From NCBI RefSeq assembly GCF_009742705.1, contig NZ_WPCU01000010.1, positions 420,391-484,390 of the forward strand: a stretch of DNA of 64,000 nucleotides, given 5' to 3'. Below, one piece after another: positions 9,650-34,628 of this stretch (position 1 is its first letter; every line of letters begins with the position of its first letter). Source of the DNA: Auraticoccus cholistanensis (GTDB lineage: Bacteria > Actinomycetota > Actinomycetes > Propionibacteriales > Propionibacteriaceae). Made by a program: the position numbers and the translations under genes. Under the pieces are notes generated by a model. The model had not been told where the DNA came from, did not search any database, and saw only the letters and a list, made by a program, of their open reading frames with translations.

Positions 9650-11313
9650 CGGGCCCCCTGCTGCTGCACCTCGGAGGCGGGCCGGGCCGGCTCCAGCGCG
9701 GGCAGCGGCAGGTCCACCGGGGCCAGCGGCAGCGGCGAGCGGTGCAGCGCCTGGCCCCGGCTGCGGGGCACGGTGAGCCGGAACTGCGCCCCGCGGCCCG
9801 GACGTCCCCAGGCGTGCAGCCAGCCGTCGTGCAGCCGGGCGTCCTCCAGCGAGATGGCCAGGCCGAGCCCGGTGCCGCCCACGGTGCGCGCCCGCGAGGG
9901 GTCGGCGCGCCAGAACCGGTGGAAGACCTGCTCGGCCTGCTCGGCGGCGAAGCCGACGCCGTGGTCGCGGACGGCCACCGCCACCGCGTGCTCGTCGGCG
10001 GCCACCGAGATGTCGATCGGGCGGCGCTCGCCGTGCTCGATGGCGTTGGTGATGAGGTTGCGCAGGATCCGCGCGATGCGCCGCGGGTCGACCTCGGCGG
10101 TGCAGGGACCGGCCGGGCGGAGCAGCCGCAGCGGCGTCCGGGCCCGGGCGGCGAAGGACTGCTGGGCGGCCATCTCCCGCTCCACCAGGTCGACCAGGTC
10201 GTGCTCCTCCAGCGCCAGCACGGCGGCGCCCGCGTCGAAGCGGGAGATCTCCAGCAGGTCGCCCAGCAGCTGCTCGAAGCGGTCCACCTCGTGGTACAGC
10301 AGCTCGGCCGAGCGCGCCTCCACCGGGGCGAAGTCCTCCCGCGCCTCGTGCAGCACCTCCGCCGCCATCCGCACCGTGGTCAGCGGGGTGCGGAGCTCGT
10401 GGCTGACGTCGGAGACGAACTGCTGCTGCACCCGCGAGAGCTCCTCCAGCCGCACGATCTGCTGCTGCAGCTCCGAGGCCATGTGGTTCATCGAGACCGC
10501 CAGGCTGGCCAGGTCGTCGGTGCCCCGCACTTCGAGCCGGTCGTCGAGGTGGCCGGCGGCCAGCCGCTCGGCGGTCAGCCGGGCCTCGCGCACCGGGTCG
10601 ACCACCTGCCGGGCGACCAGGGCCGCGACCACGGTGAGGGCGAGCACCAGCAACGTCCCGGTGGTGGCCACCGCGCGCTGGACGACCTCCAGGGTGGCCA
10701 GCTCGTCGGTCAGCGGGAACAGGAAGTAGATGGCGTAGCGGCCGGCCCCGGGGGCCAGCAGGGACCCGCCGACGGCGACGCCGGGGACCGCCTCCGAGCC
10801 GTCGGTCCAGGTGATGCGGGTGGGGGTGACCCAGGTGCCCTCCTCCTCGGCCACCTGCAGCCGCAGCGTCTCGGGGACGCTGGCCGCCGAGACCCGCGGG
10901 GAGCGGATGTCGGACACCGGGCCCTGCACGACCACCTCGTACTGGCCGCTGGTGGCTCCCCGGTTGGCCACCTCGACGGTGAGCCGGGTCAGCACCTCGT
11001 TGACGTTGGAGGTGGCGAGGTCGGCGGCCTGCAGCGAGCGCTGGGCGGTGTCCATGGCCACCGCCGCCTCGGCCAGCGCCGACTCCTGCTTGCTGCTGAG
11101 GATCCCCTCGGTGGCCTGCTGCATCAGCAGGAAGCCGCCGAGCAGCATCACCACCGTCGAGGCGGCCAGCGTGGAGGCGATCACCCGCAGCGGCAGCGAG
11201 CTCCACCACAGCCGCACCGGCGCGCCCTGCAGCCGCGCCCACCGGGAGGGGGTCGCCGGCTCGGCCCGGGGTGGCTCGACCCGGGACGGCTCAGCCCCGG
11301 CTGGTGCCGTCAC
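9646..11313 (-). CDS. mtrB: Two-component sensor histidine kinase MtrB
   Basis: 555 residues. Partner of MtrA in envelope and cell-division control. Membrane segments at about 35-60 (LRVIASTLAASTVVMLLGG) and 205-230 (TGTLLVLALTVVAALVARQV) flank an extracytoplasmic sensor; a HAMP domain follows (VDPVREARLTAERLAAG). The H-box is FVSDVSHELRTPLTTVRM near 320, the N-box is ILRNLITNAIEHGE near 435, and the G-boxes are DHGVGF and GGTGLGLAIS. The GTG start at 11313 overlaps the mtrA end by 23 bases. Confidence 0.95.
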   Translation of the reverse strand: MTAPAGAEPSRVEPPRAEPATPSRWARLQGAPVRLWWSSLPLRVIASTLAASTVVMLLGGFLLMQQATEGILSSKQESALAEAAVAMDTAQRSLQAADLATSNVNEVLTRLTVEVANRGATSGQYEVVVQGPVSDIRSPRVSAASVPETLRLQVAEEEGTWVTPTRITWTDGSEAVPGVAVGGSLLAPGAGRYAIYFLFPLTDELATLEVVQRAVATTGTLLVLALTVVAALVARQVVDPVREARLTAERLAAGHLDDRLEVRGTDDLASLAVSMNHMASELQQQIVRLEELSRVQQQFVSDVSHELRTPLTTVRMAAEVLHEAREDFAPVEARSAELLYHEVDRFEQLLGDLLEISRFDAGAAVLALEEHDLVDLVEREMAAQQSFAARARTPLRLLRPAGPCTAEVDPRRIARILRNLITNAIEHGERRPIDISVAADEHAVAVAVRDHGVGFAAEQAEQVFHRFWRADPSRARTVGGTGLGLAISLEDARLHDGWLHAWGRPGRGAQFRLTVPRSRGQALHRSPLPLAPVDLPLPALEPARPASEVQQQGAR

Positions 11314-12007
11314 CGGCCTTGTACCCGATGCCGCGCACGGTCACCACGATCTCGGGCCGCTCGGGGTCGCGCTCGATCTTGGAGCGCAGCCGCTGCACGT
11401 GGACGTTGACCAGCCGGGTGTCGGCGGCGTGCCGGTAGCCCCACACCTGCTCGAGCAGGACCTCCCGGCTGAAGACGCGGCGGGGGTTCTTGGCCAGCGC
11501 GAGCAGCAGGTCGAACTCCAGCGGGGTGAGCGAGATCTCGCGCCCGGCCCGGCGCACCGAGTGCCCCTCGACGCTGATGGTCAGGTCGCCGACGCGCAGC
11601 TCGTCGTCGCCCGGGGCCGACGGCAGCCGCCGCAGCCGGGTGCGGATCCGGGCCACCAGCTCCTTGGCCTTGAACGGCTTGGCCACGTAGTCGTCGGCGC
11701 CGGCCTCCAGCCCGGCGACCACGTCGATGGTGTCGGAGCGGGCGGTCAGCATCACCACCGGCACCCCGGACTCGGCCCGCAGGTCGCGGCAGACGTCGAC
11801 CCCGTCCCGGCCGGGGAGCATCAGGTCGAGCAGCACGAGGTCGGGCTGGTGGGTGCGGAAGGCGTCCAGGGCCTCGTCGCCGTGGCACACCCAGACCGGG
11901 TCGAAGCCCTCCTGGCGCAGCACGATCTGCAGCATCTCGGCCAGGGCGGCGTCGTCGTCGACGACCAGGATGCGGCTGCGCTGGCTCGGGGACCTGGTCT
12001 CCGACAC
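11291..12007 (-). CDS. mtrA: Two-component response regulator MtrA, OmpR/PhoB type
   Basis: 238 residues. The receiver domain (1-125) has the acidic pocket VVDDD (17-19), phosphoacceptor Asp61 in DLVLLDLMLPGRDG, MLTARS and the switch Lys in YVAKPFKAKEL. The C-terminal winged helix (about 140-235) has LTPLEFDLLLALAKNPRRVF and the recognition segment YRHAADTRLVNVHVQRLRSK. GTG start with GGAGG five bases upstream. First gene of mtrA-mtrB-lpqB. Almost identical in layout to mycobacterial MtrA, which binds oriC and division genes. Confidence 0.97.
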   Translation of the reverse strand: MSETRSPSQRSRILVVDDDAALAEMLQIVLRQEGFDPVWVCHGDEALDAFRTHQPDLVLLDLMLPGRDGVDVCRDLRAESGVPVVMLTARSDTIDVVAGLEAGADDYVAKPFKAKELVARIRTRLRRLPSAPGDDELRVGDLTISVEGHSVRRAGREISLTPLEFDLLLALAKNPRRVFSREVLLEQVWGYRHAADTRLVNVHVQRLRSKIERDPERPEIVVTVRGIGYKAGDGTSRG

Positions 12008-17424: not shown

Positions 17425-18396
17425 TCAGTCGTTGCCCTCGTCGCCGACCTCGACGGTGTCGGTGCGCTCCTGGTTGGAGCGGTCGACGCTCTCGGGGGTG
17501 TGACCGGTCTGCGGCAGCTGCTGCGGCTGCTGGGTCTGCTGCTCGGGGTCGGGCGCCGGCGGGGTGATCGGCGCCGGCGGCGCGGTGGGGGCCCCGGGCC
17601 GCATGTCCTGCATCGACTCGCTGCTGGCCACCGGCCAGCTGGGGGTGCTCAGCACCTTCGCCTCCGGCACGGTGGTCTCCATCGCCGTGCGGGCGTCCCC
17701 CGCGGGGTCGCTCCACACGCCGTCCCCGCTGTGGTAGCTCTTCAGCGTCTCCAGGTATCCCTCGAGGTAGTAGCGGGTGTTGTAGACGCGGTTGCCGAAG
17801 GTGGTGCCCGAGTCGTCGCCGGGGAGCGCGTCGACGGCGTCGGTGAGCCCCTCCACGTCGTTGAGGATGGCGGTGTAGACCCCGCCCAGCACGGCCGCGG
17901 CCTGCTCGACCCCGTAGGCGGCGGTGGCGACGTGCCCCTTCAGGTCGGCCATGGCCTGCACCTGGTCGGGGAGCTTCTTGCCGTAGGCCTCGGCCCCCGG
18001 TCCGGTCCAGTGCATCCGGGCCTGGCTGGTGGCGATGGTGTTCTCGTGGTCGCCGAGCTTGGCGGTCACGTCGTCCTTCCAGACCACGGCGGCGTCGTAG
18101 ACCAGCTTGGCCTTGCTGACGTGCCCGGCGAACTCGTCGGTCCAGTAGCCGTGCAGCTCGTCCCAGGCGGTGTTCATCTCCGCGACCAGCTCGTCGAAGC
18201 GGGCCCAGACGGCGTCCTCCTCGTCGCCGGAGGTGGTGAACCAGCCGTTGTACTCCTCGTCGAGCTTGTCCATCACCGCGTCCATCTCGTCGCGGTCGCG
18301 CTGCTCGGCGGTGGCCGTCATCTCCTTGAGGGCCTGCCAGGCCTCGGTCAGCTTGCCCGGCATGGCCGACCAGCTGGAGAAGTCAGGGGTGCTCAT
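17425..18396 (-). CDS. WXG100-like putative type VII secretion substrate
   Basis: 323 residues, mostly helical and acidic. N-terminal helices (MSTPDFSSWSAMPGKLTEAW; DRDEMDAVMDKLDEEYNGWF) lead to a central hairpin with a W-x-G turn in RMHWTGPGAEAYGKKLPDQV (about 150-170), followed by GHVATAAYGVEQAAAVLGG. This is the pattern of WXG100/EsxA-like proteins, but the protein is three times longer. The C-terminal 60 residues are rich in Pro and Gln and likely disordered. ATG with GAGGAG upstream. Third gene of a three-gene unit with 18418 and 19736. No secretion ATPase is nearby. The family was not recognised beyond this. Confidence 0.75.
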   Translation of the reverse strand: MSTPDFSSWSAMPGKLTEAWQALKEMTATAEQRDRDEMDAVMDKLDEEYNGWFTTSGDEEDAVWARFDELVAEMNTAWDELHGYWTDEFAGHVSKAKLVYDAAVVWKDDVTAKLGDHENTIATSQARMHWTGPGAEAYGKKLPDQVQAMADLKGHVATAAYGVEQAAAVLGGVYTAILNDVEGLTDAVDALPGDDSGTTFGNRVYNTRYYLEGYLETLKSYHSGDGVWSDPAGDARTAMETTVPEAKVLSTPSWPVASSESMQDMRPGAPTAPPAPITPPAPDPEQQTQQPQQLPQTGHTPESVDRSNQERTDTVEVGDEGND

Positions 18397-18413
18397 CGTG
18401 TGCTCCTCGGGGC

Positions 18414-19709
18414 TCAGACGGCGTACGGGGTGCGGCTGCGGGGCCGGGTCTGCGGCGTCGGGTCGGCGGCCGGCGGCGGGGCGTCGTCCCCGGTGCTGGC
18501 GCCGGCGTCCTGCTCGTTGCTGCGCTCGGTCTCGTCGTACTTGTCGGCGGCCTTGGTCAGCGCGTTGGCCATGCCCTCGAACTCGGCGGCGCCCTTCTCC
18601 AGGTAGCGCAGCACGTCCGAGCGCAGGTTGGTGTAGCTGGTCGACAGGGTGTGGACGAAGGCGAAGTCGGTGTAGGTGACCTCGGTGCCGGACTCGTGCT
18701 GGCTCTTGGCCTCCTTGTAGGCCTGGCTGGCCTCGTGCCAGGTCTTGGCCTCGGCCCGCAGGTCGTCCACGGCCACCTGGCGGTCCACCGCGCCGAGGCC
18801 ACCGCCGCCGGCACCACCGCCACCGCCACCACCGGGCATGCCGCCTCCGCCGGGCAGGCCGCCGCCTCCGCCGGGGGCGCCGCCTCCGGGGCCGCCGAGG
18901 TCCGGCATGGCCGGGCCGGACCCCGGCCGGTCGCCGAGGGAGTCGGGGTCCAGACCGCCCGGGTCGACCGCACCGGGGCCGGGCCGGGTGCCCGGGGTGT
19001 AGGGGCTGAAGTCCTGCTCGGGCACGGAGGTGTCCGGGGTGGGCGGCGTGGTGGAGCCGCCGGGCGTCCAGGGCTGGCCGTCGGGGCGGCCGGGCGTCCA
19101 CGGCTGGTAGCCCGAGGGTCCGGAGCCGGCGCCGTAGTCGGAGCCGGTGCCGTGGTCGGCGTCGATGTCGTCGGGGATGCCGTCGCCGTCGGCGTCGCCG
19201 CCGCCGAAGGAGGTGTCGGTGCCGCCCCCGGCGCCGCCGACGCCGGCTGCGCTGGTGCCGGCGCCGGCGCTCAGCGCCGAGCCGCCCGCACCACCGCCGG
19301 GGACGCCGCCGATGCCACCCGCGCCGGAGGGGATGCCACCGCCGCCGCCCGGTAGACCGCCCACGCCGGGGCCGCCGCCCGGCACCCCGCCACCGGGGAC
19401 GCCGAGACCGGCGCCGGCCGATCCGGGTCCACCCGGGCCGGCCACCGGGGAGCCCGCCACGGCGGCTCCGCCGAGGCCGGCCGCCTGGGCGTTCTGTGCG
19501 CCCGCCGGACCGCCGCCCCGGGTGCCGCCCATGGCACCCATCGGCGGCATCATCATCGGGCTGGCCCCGCCGCCGGAGCGGGACCCGGCGCCGTCCTGCT
19601 CGTGGGGGTTGATCAGACCCTCGTAGAGGTCGACGTCCTCGAGCTCGTCGTCACCGCCGATGCCGGCGAAACCGGATCGGGTGACCCGCTGGGGCTCGTG
19701 CTCGCTCAT
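18414..19709 (-). CDS. Gly/Pro-rich protein with YxxxE-tailed helical C-terminus
   Basis: 431 residues. After an acidic start (DDELEDVDLYEGLINPHE), residues about 50-300 are low-complexity Gly, Pro, Ala and Ser with a calcium-loop-like DADGDGIPDDIDADHG. The last 130 residues form a helical domain (VAVDDLRAEAKTWHEASQAY ... LRSDVLRYLEKGAAEFEGMA) that ends in AADKYDETE, fitting the YxxxD/E export signal of type VII (ESX) substrates at the expected place after a helical hairpin. ATG with GGAGGA. It lies 17 bases upstream of the WXG100-like gene. Not a recognised named protein. Confidence 0.72.
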   Translation of the reverse strand: MSEHEPQRVTRSGFAGIGGDDELEDVDLYEGLINPHEQDGAGSRSGGGASPMMMPPMGAMGGTRGGGPAGAQNAQAAGLGGAAVAGSPVAGPGGPGSAGAGLGVPGGGVPGGGPGVGGLPGGGGGIPSGAGGIGGVPGGGAGGSALSAGAGTSAAGVGGAGGGTDTSFGGGDADGDGIPDDIDADHGTGSDYGAGSGPSGYQPWTPGRPDGQPWTPGGSTTPPTPDTSVPEQDFSPYTPGTRPGPGAVDPGGLDPDSLGDRPGSGPAMPDLGGPGGGAPGGGGGLPGGGGMPGGGGGGGAGGGGLGAVDRQVAVDDLRAEAKTWHEASQAYKEAKSQHESGTEVTYTDFAFVHTLSTSYTNLRSDVLRYLEKGAAEFEGMANALTKAADKYDETERSNEQDAGASTGDDAPPPAADPTPQTRPRSRTPYAV

Positions 19710-19735
19710 GCTTCCTCCGCAGGTGTGGGGACGGT

Positions 19736-20512
19736 TCAGGGCAGGCGGCCGCTGAGCAGCGACAGCAGCTCCCGGCGGTGCTCCAGGCGGCGCTCCACCA
19801 GCCGGTCGAGCTCGCCCGGCTCGTACCGCGGCGGCTGCCAGGCGTCGTAGGCGGCGGTCATGGCCTGCTCGAGGGCGGCGGTCAGCTCGCTCACCCGGGC
19901 GTGCTCGTGTGCCCACTGCCGGTCGACCTCGACGCGCTGCACCGGGCCGGCGGCGGCGAGCACCACCCGGACGCGGCCGTTGGCGCTGCGGCCCTCGGCG
20001 AGCGGGCTGCTCAGGGTCGCCCGCTCCACCTCCTCCGGCGGCCGGGCGCGGAGCCGGGCGCTCTCCTCCGACAGCGCCAGCGTGGTGTCCAGCAGGGTGT
20101 TGAAGGCGGCCCAGTCGATCGACCGGTCCCCGGGTGCGCGGCGGGGCCCGGACGGCAGCTCCAGGGCGGCGAACCCCGCTGCCACCGGGCCGCGGGGCGG
20201 GCCGAGCTGGCCGCGCCGGCAGGCGACCACGACCGCCGCCCCGAGCTCGACACCGGCCCGCTTCAGCCGCTCGCGCCAGCGGGTGGAGACACGCAGCTCG
20301 AGCACCCGGAACCGGTCCTCGTCCAGGCGGACGGAGACCGCGCCGCTGGGGTCCGAGATCAGGCCGTCCTCGCCGTCCGCCGGGTCCGGCAGGACGTCGA
20401 CCGGGGCCGCGGCGGGCCCGACGGGGCCGGGACCGGGCGCGGCGGCGGACGGGAGGTCGCGGGTGGGGTCCAGCGGGTCGTCCTCGAGGGACTGGTCGGT
20501 CCAGATGCTCAT
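19736..20512 (-). CDS. YbaB/EbfC-like protein of the WXG100-like cassette
   Basis: 258 residues. The N-terminal half is a beta-rich domain with FRVLELRVSTRWRERLKRAG. The C-terminal half (about 165-258) resembles YbaB/EbfC folds: SANGRVRVVLAAAGPVQRVE, VDRQWAHEHARVSELTAALE, QAMTAAYDAW. Such proteins occur beside ESX substrates in actinobacteria and may act as chaperones rather than nucleoid proteins; that is inference. ATG at 20510-20512 with AGGGAG upstream; the frame is open further upstream without support. First gene of the cassette; 26 bases to the next. Confidence 0.7.
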   Translation of the reverse strand: MSIWTDQSLEDDPLDPTRDLPSAAAPGPGPVGPAAAPVDVLPDPADGEDGLISDPSGAVSVRLDEDRFRVLELRVSTRWRERLKRAGVELGAAVVVACRRGQLGPPRGPVAAGFAALELPSGPRRAPGDRSIDWAAFNTLLDTTLALSEESARLRARPPEEVERATLSSPLAEGRSANGRVRVVLAAAGPVQRVEVDRQWAHEHARVSELTAALEQAMTAAYDAWQPPRYEPGELDRLVERRLEHRRELLSLLSGRLP

Positions 20513-20601: not shown

Positions 20602-21165
20602 TCAGTTCAGCTCGGGGGTGTCGGTCCAGGTGCTCAACCAGGCCAGCCGTCCGGGCTGGCGACGCAGCACCCGCCGCCACATCGGCACCGGGTCGGGGCC
20701 GAAGACGTCGTCGTAGCGCGAGGGCACCACGTGCCAGTACCCCTCGGCCAGCTCGCCCTCCAGCTGGCCGGGCTCCCAGCCGGCGTACCCGGCGAAGATG
20801 CGCAGGTCGTCGTAGGCCCCGGCGACGATCTCCAGCGGGGTGTCCAGGTGCAGCAGCCCGACGTTGTCGTAGAGCCGGCGCCAGCCCGGCGGCTCCTCCC
20901 CCACGTGCGCGACCGCGGCCACGCAGATGGCGCCGTTGGGCGAGACCGGACCGCCGTGGAAGAGCACCCGCGGGTGGCTGACCCGGTCCACCCAGTCCGG
21001 CAGCACCGAGGCCAGCGACAGCTCGGAGAGCTTGTTCACCATCACGCCCAGGGCGCCGTCCTCGTCGGCGTCGAGCACGAGCACGACGCTGTGGTCGAAC
21101 TCGCCGCCGCTGAGGCCGGGGCTGGCGACCAGCAGGTCTCCGGGCTTGGGTCGGGTCGGCGTCAC
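20602..21165 (-). CDS. YqgE/AlgH family protein
   Basis: 187 residues. UPF0301 family. Diagnostic segments are KPGDLLVASPGLSGGEFDHS, VVLVLDADEDGALGVMVNKL, VLFHGGPVSPNGAICV, LRIFAGYAGWEPGQLEGELA and GYWHVVPSRYDDVF. The biochemical role is not established. GTG start with AGGA. It lies nine bases after the malic enzyme stop, so the two are likely co-transcribed. Confidence 0.95.
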   Translation of the reverse strand: MTPTRPKPGDLLVASPGLSGGEFDHSVVLVLDADEDGALGVMVNKLSELSLASVLPDWVDRVSHPRVLFHGGPVSPNGAICVAAVAHVGEEPPGWRRLYDNVGLLHLDTPLEIVAGAYDDLRIFAGYAGWEPGQLEGELAEGYWHVVPSRYDDVFGPDPVPMWRRVLRRQPGRLAWLSTWTDTPELN

Positions 21166-34250: not shown

Positions 34251-34261
34251 CGCCGTGCGGG

Positions 34262-34628
34262 TGGAGGTGGCGGGAATCGAACCCGCGTCCTCGGAAAGTG
34301 GACCAGGGCTTCTCCGGGCGCAGCTGGTGATGTCGCATTTCTCGGCCCCCACGCTCGCACCAGCACGTCGTGGACAGGCCCAGCCCTAGTGAAGTCCCCG
34401 TCGCGCCCTAAGGCGTAGCGTGACGAGCAAGTCTCCTAGATGACGCCAGTACCCGGGTCGGAGACGGCACCCGGACTGACGCTTCGGTCACTGCTCAGGC
34501 AGCGAGAGCGAAGTCAGTGCGCTTAGAATCGGCACTTGTTGGTTTCCAAGGAACGTTTACGAGATGACCTTGGATTCTCGGCCCGCTTCCCCTGGAACTA
34601 CTGTTCCAAGTCGAAACCGATCACCCCC
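34262..34628 (-). ncRNA. ssrA: Transfer-messenger RNA (tmRNA)
   Basis: About 367 nt. The 5' end GGGGGTGATCGGTTTCGAC pairs with the 3' CACCTCC to form the tRNA-like acceptor stem; the T arm is GGGTTCGATTCCCG near the 3' end. The CCA is not encoded in full. The tag frame (34495-34533) reads GCC-GAT-TCT to TGA and gives ADSKRTDFALAA, the actinobacterial type with the protease signal ALAA. Its partner smpB is at 38870 on the same strand. A weak -10 (TACAAC on the minus strand) lies 6 bases upstream of the first G. Confidence 0.97.

What the first reader, a model, noticed from the sequence alone, without database searches (positions are those of the whole stretch)
17425..20512. Three-gene cassette of type VII-like substrates without a secretion machine
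The sequence shows three close genes, read minus: a YbaB-like protein, a Gly/Pro-rich protein ending in AADKYDETE (fits the YxxxD/E export signal after a helical hairpin), and a WXG100-like protein three times normal length with W-T-G at the turn of a hairpin. No EccC, EccB, EccD or EccE gene is present. It may be an orphan ESX effector pair with its own YbaB-like chaperone. The calcium-loop-like DADGDGIPDD and the long Gly-rich spacer hint at a secreted surface protein.
Basis: partly seen in the sequence, partly recalled or inferred. Interest (0 to 1): 0.65.

Follow-up and report, generated by a model that had tools for sequence, protein, structure and literature searches.

The report
EspACD-like type VII export module
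Three neighbouring genes in a soil-type actinobacterium encode a pair of proteins built to leave the cell through a type VII secretion machine plus their likely escort protein, much like a set known from tuberculosis bacteria, and the machine itself does exist elsewhere in the same genome.

Summary
Window 17425-20512(-) is an operon: Y (258 aa, YbaB-like), G (431 aa, Gly/Pro-rich with a C-terminal helical hairpin and YDETE) and W (323 aa, helical, W130-T-G132 exactly at a hairpin turn). No ecc gene lies in the window. The genome is not machine-less: another contig carries eccB, eccC, eccD, eccE, mycP and two esx genes. The triplet recurs across Propionibacteriaceae (16 aligned sets). W is down to 14-23% identity beyond the genus, yet W-x-G is invariant (16/16) and [YF]xxx[DE] is kept in G (16/16). 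It usually lies between yqgE and mtrA; several genomes without it have these two genes adjacent. Among 197 family genomes all 35 with EccE match the W profile, against 3 of 162 without (weak hits). In one relative G and W sit inside the ecc locus. The same YbaB / EspC-like / WXG triad occurs in other families, and twice more in this genome. Best reading: a heterodimeric type VII substrate (EspA/EspC-like) with a dedicated YbaB-fold chaperone (EspD/EspH-like), exported by the genome's EccBCDE. It is a new variant of a known kind. Export itself is inferred, not shown.

The parts
19736..20512 (-). Gene Y, 258 aa: YbaB-fold protein, likely dedicated export chaperone (EspD/EspH-like role)
   Evidence: Pfam YbaB E=0.0042 for this protein, 14/16 relatives at E<=0.01; the profile's only two PDB matches are YbaB-family proteins, weak
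19847..20011 (-). YbaB-like domain of Y (residues 168-222)
   Evidence: Pfam PF02575 match range
18414..19709 (-). Gene G, 431 aa: EspC-like substrate partner with long Gly/Pro-rich N-terminal extension
   Evidence: Pfam EspC matches 9/16 relatives at E<=0.1, best 5.8e-5; anatomy
19605..19631 (-). Conserved N-terminal motif DLYEGLINP of G (consensus DLDIYEALINP), followed by a conserved MMMPP stretch
   Evidence: alignment A4; similar motif in paralogues L128 and L134
19167..19196 (-). Calcium-loop-like DADGDGIPDD in G
   Evidence: DxDGDGxPD in 7 of 16 aligned sets; similar loops in L134
18495..18770 (-). C-terminal helical hairpin of G (residues 314-405)
   Evidence: AlphaFold2 H17-43/H55-108 of the modelled fragment, pLDDT about 90 in the helix cores; best 33 Foldseek PDB rows are all WXG100, PE or PE/PPE chains
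18525..18539 (-). YDETE, the YxxxD/E export motif (G residues 391-395), near the end of the second helix
   Evidence: same column is [YF]xxx[DE] in 16/16
17425..18396 (-). Gene W, 323 aa: helical WXG partner (EspA/EspE-like), disordered Pro/Gln-rich tail
   Evidence: profile matches ESAT-6-like 4i0x_B E=2.4e-4 and EsxA 3zbh E=0.0026; model
17830..18114 (-). WXG hairpin of W (helices 95-128 and 133-189)
   Evidence: AlphaFold2; the WXG100 profile match covers this stretch
18001..18009 (-). W130-T131-G132 at the hairpin turn
   Evidence: W and G invariant in 16/16
20602..21165 (-). yqgE-like gene, conserved upstream neighbour (not part of the module)
   Evidence: next to Y in most relatives; next to mtrA in several genomes without the module
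11291..12007 (-). mtrA, conserved downstream neighbour in most relatives; here separated from W by a MoxR/DUF58 operon (not part of the module)
   Evidence: gene calls and synteny

Best explanation
Y-G-W encodes a chaperoned type VII (T7SSa) substrate complex. Inferred mechanism: W (WXG hairpin) and the hairpin of G pair into a four-helix heterodimer, which carries the two-part export signal, W-x-G at W's turn and YxxxD/E after G's second helix. The YbaB-fold protein Y binds and stabilises the pair in the cytosol, as reported for EspD with EspA/EspC and EspH with EspE. The complex is then taken to EccC of the EccB-C-D-E/MycP machine encoded on another contig and exported, carrying G's Gly-rich, calcium-loop extension and W's disordered tail outside the membrane. 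Because the cassette tracks the EccE-type machine almost one to one, it is more likely a standing part of that system's work (co-secreted or envelope component) than a dispensable effector. Shown by computation: genes, motifs, predicted folds, synteny, co-occurrence, presence of the machine. Inferred: dimerisation, chaperoning, export, location.
For: W-x-G invariant and [YF]xxx[DE] kept in 16/16 sets whose other columns have a median top-residue frequency of 0.31. Hairpins predicted with WTG at the turn and YDETE near the end of helix 2; Foldseek's best 33 rows for G are all WXG100, PE or PE/PPE chains. Profiles: W to ESAT-6-like proteins, G to EspC, EspB and PE25, Y to YbaB. Complete machine in the genome. 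Co-occurrence: 35/35 EccE-positive genomes match W against 3/162 EccE-negative, also within genera; 19/19 when the 16 training genomes are left out; Y in 34/35 against 4/162. In L134 G and W lie between eccB and the esx pair. Triads with above-cut-off YbaB, EspC or WXG100_2 matches occur in other families and in this genome. Chaperone precedent: PMC6107294, PMC6319747.
Against: No experiment shows export or binding. The window proteins taken singly stay below the curated cut-offs of YbaB, EspC, EspA_EspE and WXG100. The whole-W fold comparison does not discriminate. The cassette is not next to ecc genes in this genome. Y was not folded, and YbaB relatives can bind DNA. No complex could be predicted here. 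Weak W-profile matches in some genomes may be other WXG proteins of the same system.
Confidence: 0.82

Rival explanations
1. Envelope accessory of the secretion machine rather than cargo: the G-W pair assembles outside the membrane as a co-dependent component (as proposed for EspC filaments) and is needed for secretion of the Esx pair. This shares the export step with the best explanation and differs in the purpose.
For: Near one-to-one presence with EccE; usually at one fixed chromosomal site next to mtrAB; W has no toxin-like domain and its tail is predicted disordered. EspA/EspC co-dependence with EsxA/EsxB is reported in mycobacteria (PMC6319747).
Against: Some species carry several extra copies with variable W tails, which looks more like cargo diversification.
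Confidence: 0.35
2. Antibacterial or contact-dependent effector delivery: W is a carrier head of the polymorphic-toxin kind, here with a very short or lost toxin part.
For: Homologous triads elsewhere end in a YwqJ-deaminase-like domain (L092, just below cut-off) or DUF6883 (L084, above cut-off); this genome has a second triad whose WXG protein is 998 aa (L153).
Against: W here and in all 16 sets is 229-384 aa with no recognisable toxin domain, and no immunity-like gene is adjacent.
Confidence: 0.1
3. Regulatory or nucleoid module: Y is a DNA-binding YbaB protein acting on the neighbouring mtrAB-lpqB genes, and G and W are cytosolic.
For: YbaB/EbfC family; conserved place upstream of mtrA in most relatives.
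Against: The bipartite export motifs are among the most conserved columns of G and W, presence follows EccE, and mtrAB-lpqB exist normally without the cassette. EspH deletion was tested for a transcriptional effect in M. marinum and the authors propose a chaperone role (PMC6107294).
Confidence: 0.04

Closest known systems
espA-espC-espD of Mycobacterium tuberculosis (ESX-1 associated)
   Same: Three-gene unit unlinked from the machine: WXG-type large partner, YxxxD/E small partner, YbaB-like stabiliser; EspD stabilises EspA/EspC (PMC6107294, PMC6319747). espACD lies more than 260 kb from esx-1 (PMC6107294).
   Different: Gene order here is chaperone first. G is 431 aa with a Gly/Pro-rich, calcium-loop N-terminus, whereas EspC is about 100 aa (own knowledge). 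Host family has no mycolic-acid outer membrane. Sequence relation is only detectable by weak profile matches.
espE-espF with espH and espL (ESX-1)
   Same: YbaB-like EspH binds EspE and is needed for EspE/EspF secretion; EspL, also predicted YbaB-like, stabilises EspE, EspF and EspH (PMC6107294, PMC6319747).
   Different: Those are encoded in the esx-1 locus; in most genomes here the triad is outside the ecc locus (G308 is the exception for G and W).
WXG100 proteins (ESAT-6/CFP-10 type)
   Same: Helical hairpin with W-x-G at the turn; profile of W matches ESAT-6-like structures.
   Different: 323 aa instead of about 100, an extra N-terminal hairpin, score below the family cut-offs.
PE/PPE pairs with EspG
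   Same: Heterodimeric hairpin substrates with YxxxD/E on one partner and a dedicated chaperone; G hairpin resembles PE25.
   Different: Chaperone looks YbaB-like, not EspG-like; W has no PPE family match.
Actinomycete YbaB / EspC-like / WXG100_2 triads with C-terminal effector domains (e.g. L084, L092)
   Same: Same three parts in the same order, with above-cut-off YbaB matches in both, above-cut-off EspC in L092 and near-cut-off WXG100_2 matches.
   Different: There W carries a toxin-like C-terminus and G is only about 100 aa.

Membership tests
T7SSa substrate pair (EspA/EspC-like) | W-x-G at the turn of a helical hairpin on one partner | tested here: met
   W130/G132 invariant 16/16; model places it between helices 95-128 and 133-189
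T7SSa substrate pair (EspA/EspC-like) | YxxxD/E following a helix-turn-helix on the other partner | tested here: met
   YDETE near the end of helix 2; [YF]xxx[DE] in 16/16
T7SSa substrate pair (EspA/EspC-like) | EccC-bearing machine in the genome | tested here: met
   EccC 840 bits (cut-off 509), EccB, EccE, mycosin, two Esx; EccD by homology
T7SSa substrate pair (EspA/EspC-like) | Heterodimer formation and EccC-dependent secretion | not testable with these tools
   needs complex prediction or experiment
WXG100 (PF06013 / TIGR03930) | Score above curated cut-off, about 100 aa | tested here: not met
   W scores 16.8 against 44.85 bits, 323 aa; so it is WXG-like, not filed as WXG100
EspC family PF10824 | Score above curated cut-off for the window protein | tested here: not met
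   G hairpin 15.1 against 23.5 bits; 9/16 relatives match at E<=0.1, best 5.8e-5; so EspC-like, not filed as EspC
EspA_EspE family PF18879 | Score above curated cut-off | tested here: not met
   11.5 against 27 bits; 3/16 relatives at E<=0.1
YbaB/EbfC PF02575 | Profile match over the domain | tested here: inconclusive
   Window protein 17.7 against 25.5 bits (E=0.0042), but 14/16 relatives match at E<=0.01, best 1.7e-8
espACD-type chaperone unit | YbaB-like protein stabilises the pair | not testable with these tools
   co-directional neighbours in the 16 sets, with start-codon overlaps in several; binding not tested

The most novel reading that the evidence does not exclude
YbaB-fold chaperone plus EspC-like partner plus WXG carrier is a general T7SSa client module throughout Actinomycetes, not a mycobacterial ESX-1 speciality. 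It serves both surface proteins and toxin carriers, and in Propionibacteriaceae one copy has become an obligate part of an EccE-containing system in bacteria without a mycomembrane.
Probability: 0.55. Interest if true: 0.68.

Novelty: new variant of a known kind. Interest (0 to 1): 0.55.

Why it matters
A paper on EspH calls EspH-like (YbaB-fold) proteins unique to the ESX-1 system (PMC6107294). Finding the same three-part logic in soil-type Propionibacteriaceae and in other actinomycete families suggests that YbaB-fold chaperones are a general solution for loading type VII substrates, and it offers non-pathogenic organisms in which to test how EspA/EspC/EspD-like units work. The tight link to EccE also bears on the published view that Propionibacteriales carry ESX-4-type clusters and that eccE was added later on plasmids (PMC4791881).

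Tried and rejected
Whole-W fold searches returned generic helical bundles; PPE15 and PPE41 appear at Z about 8 but do not stand out, so not used. A single-sequence PDB search with W found nothing. The Y alignment was too divergent for a genome-contig scan; G worked but returned only 7 loci. The idea that W here carries a toxin domain was dropped: no Pfam match beyond the WXG region that means anything. EccC alone as co-occurrence marker was dropped in favour of EccE, because a second EccC type without EccE muddies it. Weak W-profile matches outside the family were first taken as noise, but the neighbours of several proved to be YbaB and EspC-like genes. No complex prediction was possible with the tools.

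Full report
What is there. The window lies on contig C5 of a 3.8 Mb genome. Relatives named by the genome-contig scan are Propionibacteriaceae / Propionibacteriales, among them Propioniferax innocua. Three genes are read on the minus strand: Y 19736-20512 (258 aa), G 18414-19709 (431 aa) and W 17425-18396 (323 aa), with 26 and 17 bp between them. In many relatives the starts overlap the previous stop by 1 or 4 bases, which suggests translational coupling. Upstream is a yqgE-like gene; downstream, convergent, is a MoxR/DUF58 operon and then mtrA-mtrB-lpqB.

Single-protein profile searches are weak: Y to YbaB E=0.0042, G to EspC E=0.3 (0.031 with the hairpin alone), W to WXG100_ESAT6 E=0.0057 and EspA_EspE E=0.42, all below the curated cut-offs. 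They point to the same system, so I collected relatives.

Conservation. A protein search found the W gene in other genera at roughly 21-29% identity over most of its length, with Y beside it in the best cases. I extracted 16 Y-G-W sets by position. In W the only invariant columns are Met1, D34, W106, W130 and G132: the W-x-G pair is fixed while the median column has a top-residue frequency of 0.31. In the C-terminal part of G, the YxxxE columns rank near the top: 14 Y and 2 F, then 15 E and 1 D. Fourteen of 16 Y proteins match Pfam YbaB at E<=0.01, best 1.7e-8; nine of 16 G hairpins match EspC at E<=0.1, best 5.8e-5; three W match EspA_EspE. Against solved structures, the W profile finds ESAT-6-like 4i0x_B (2.4e-4) and EsxA 3zbh (0.0026), though a designed helix bundle scores higher over another stretch; the G profile finds EspB, ESAT-6-like MAB_3112 and PE25 at E 0.015-0.7, mixed with a few unrelated helical proteins; the Y profile finds only YbaB-family proteins, weakly.

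Structure. AlphaFold2 of the G C-terminus gives a hairpin, helices 314-340 and 352-405, pLDDT about 90 in the cores, with YDETE at 391-395. Foldseek's best 33 rows in PDB are all WXG100, PE or PE/PPE-complex chains, with E-values of 0.1 to 1.3 and probability near 1 for most. W is predicted as two helical hairpins, and W130-T-G132 sits between helices 95-128 and 133-189. Whole-W fold comparison is uninformative.

The machine. No Ecc, MycP or Esx homologue lies in the window, but contig C8 of the same genome carries EccC (840 bits, cut-off 509), EccB (205, cut-off 154), EccE (115, cut-off 108), a mycosin (243, below its cut-off of 278.75), EccD (80% identical to a TIGR03920-positive protein of a sister genome), two WXG100 proteins, and a PPE-like protein beside a 115-aa protein. 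One of the WXG100 proteins ends in ...YDANE..., the same kind of motif as in G.

Co-occurrence. In 197 Propionibacteriaceae genomes, 35 have a clear EccE; all 35 match the W profile, against 3 of 162 without EccE, each weakly. Leaving out the 16 genomes used to build the profile, 19 of 19 remain. Y, which has no WXG domain, is found in 34 of the 35 and in 4 of 162. The association holds inside the largest genus (17 both, 1 W only, 0 EccE only, 20 neither) and points the same way in three others. Some weak W matches could be other WXG proteins of the system; the 20 strong ones (E<1e-30) are all EccE-positive. EccC alone gives the same direction but is blurred by a second EccC type lacking EccE.

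Place. In most relatives the order is yqgE-Y-G-W-mtrA-mtrB-lpqB. In several genomes without the cassette yqgE and mtrA are neighbours with roughly 50-180 bp between them. In G308 a G gene (with the MMPP stretch, DxDGDG loops and YAEME) and a W gene (GWSG) lie between eccB and the esx pair in the ecc locus.

Wider occurrence. The W and G profiles also hit other families of the class; several of those hits sit in the same triad. In other families of the same order the G partner is only 104-113 aa (YDDTD, YDGTD, YSNTD). Elsewhere YbaB scores above its cut-off (43.4, 46.8, 30.4 bits), EspC at 40.4, and the W protein carries a YwqJ-deaminase-like C-terminus (L092, just below cut-off) or DUF6883 (L084). 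The window's genome has two further triads: one on C8 with YbaB (32.1 bits), a 110-aa partner with YADVE and a 998-aa WXG100_2 protein, and one on C2 with EspC-like, WXG100_2 and YbaB-like genes.

Mechanism. From mycobacteria: EspD stabilises EspA/EspC, EspH binds EspE and is needed for EspE/EspF secretion, EspL stabilises EspE/F/H; EspH and EspL are described as YbaB-like, and EspD is a homologue of EspH; the export signal is described as WXG on one partner and YxxxD/E on the other (PMC6107294, PMC6319747). The Y-G-W operon has each of these parts. I therefore infer that Y escorts a G-W heterodimer to EccC of the EccBCDE machine, and that the exported pair displays G's Gly-rich, calcium-loop-bearing extension. 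Dimerisation, chaperoning, export and location are inferences.

Difference from the known units: order (chaperone first), the 300-residue extension on the EspC-like partner with a conserved N-terminal DLDIYEALINP motif (in eight of the sets) and DxDGDG loops, host family without a mycomembrane, and usual residence next to mtrAB. A literature search in the held library found no paper combining YbaB with polymorphic toxins and type VII secretion, and a 2024 survey of T7SS variants does not mention EspA or EspC. One paper states that EspH-like proteins are unique to ESX-1.

Noticed in passing
L045 1901-3076 (G000 contig C8) and 34 other family genomes: An EccE-containing type VII locus in Propionibacteriaceae, although the literature assigns ESX-4-type clusters to Propionibacteriales and a later gain of eccE in mycolic-acid bacteria (PMC4791881).
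   Followed up: partly
L153 835-4674 (G000 contig C8): A second triad in the same genome: YbaB-like 168 aa, small partner with YADVE 110 aa, and a 998-aa protein headed by WXG100_2; the long C-terminus matches no Pfam family.
   Followed up: partly
L154 1528-2787 (G000 contig C2): A third set in the same genome: EspC-like 106 aa (YDSVE), WXG100_2 164 aa, YbaB-like 146 aa.
   Followed up: partly
L121 7008-13174 (G074): In a relative without the cassette, an eccC-like and probably an eccD-like gene of a second T7SS type lie directly beside yqgE-mtrA, the very site where the cassette sits in others.
   Followed up: partly
L092 442-3165; L084 529-2388: Triads in other actinomycete families whose WXG protein ends in a YwqJ-deaminase-like domain or DUF6883, suggesting toxin carriers with a YbaB chaperone.
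   Followed up: partly
L045 3073-3789: A 238 aa gene after eccE, with counterparts in ecc loci of relatives, without any Pfam or NCBIfam match.
   Followed up: no
G216 contig C1 and C2: One relative (G216) has ten Y-profile matches, so the YbaB-like chaperone family is greatly expanded there.
   Followed up: no
window 34260-34628: tmRNA gene with tag ADSKRTDFALAA.
   Followed up: no
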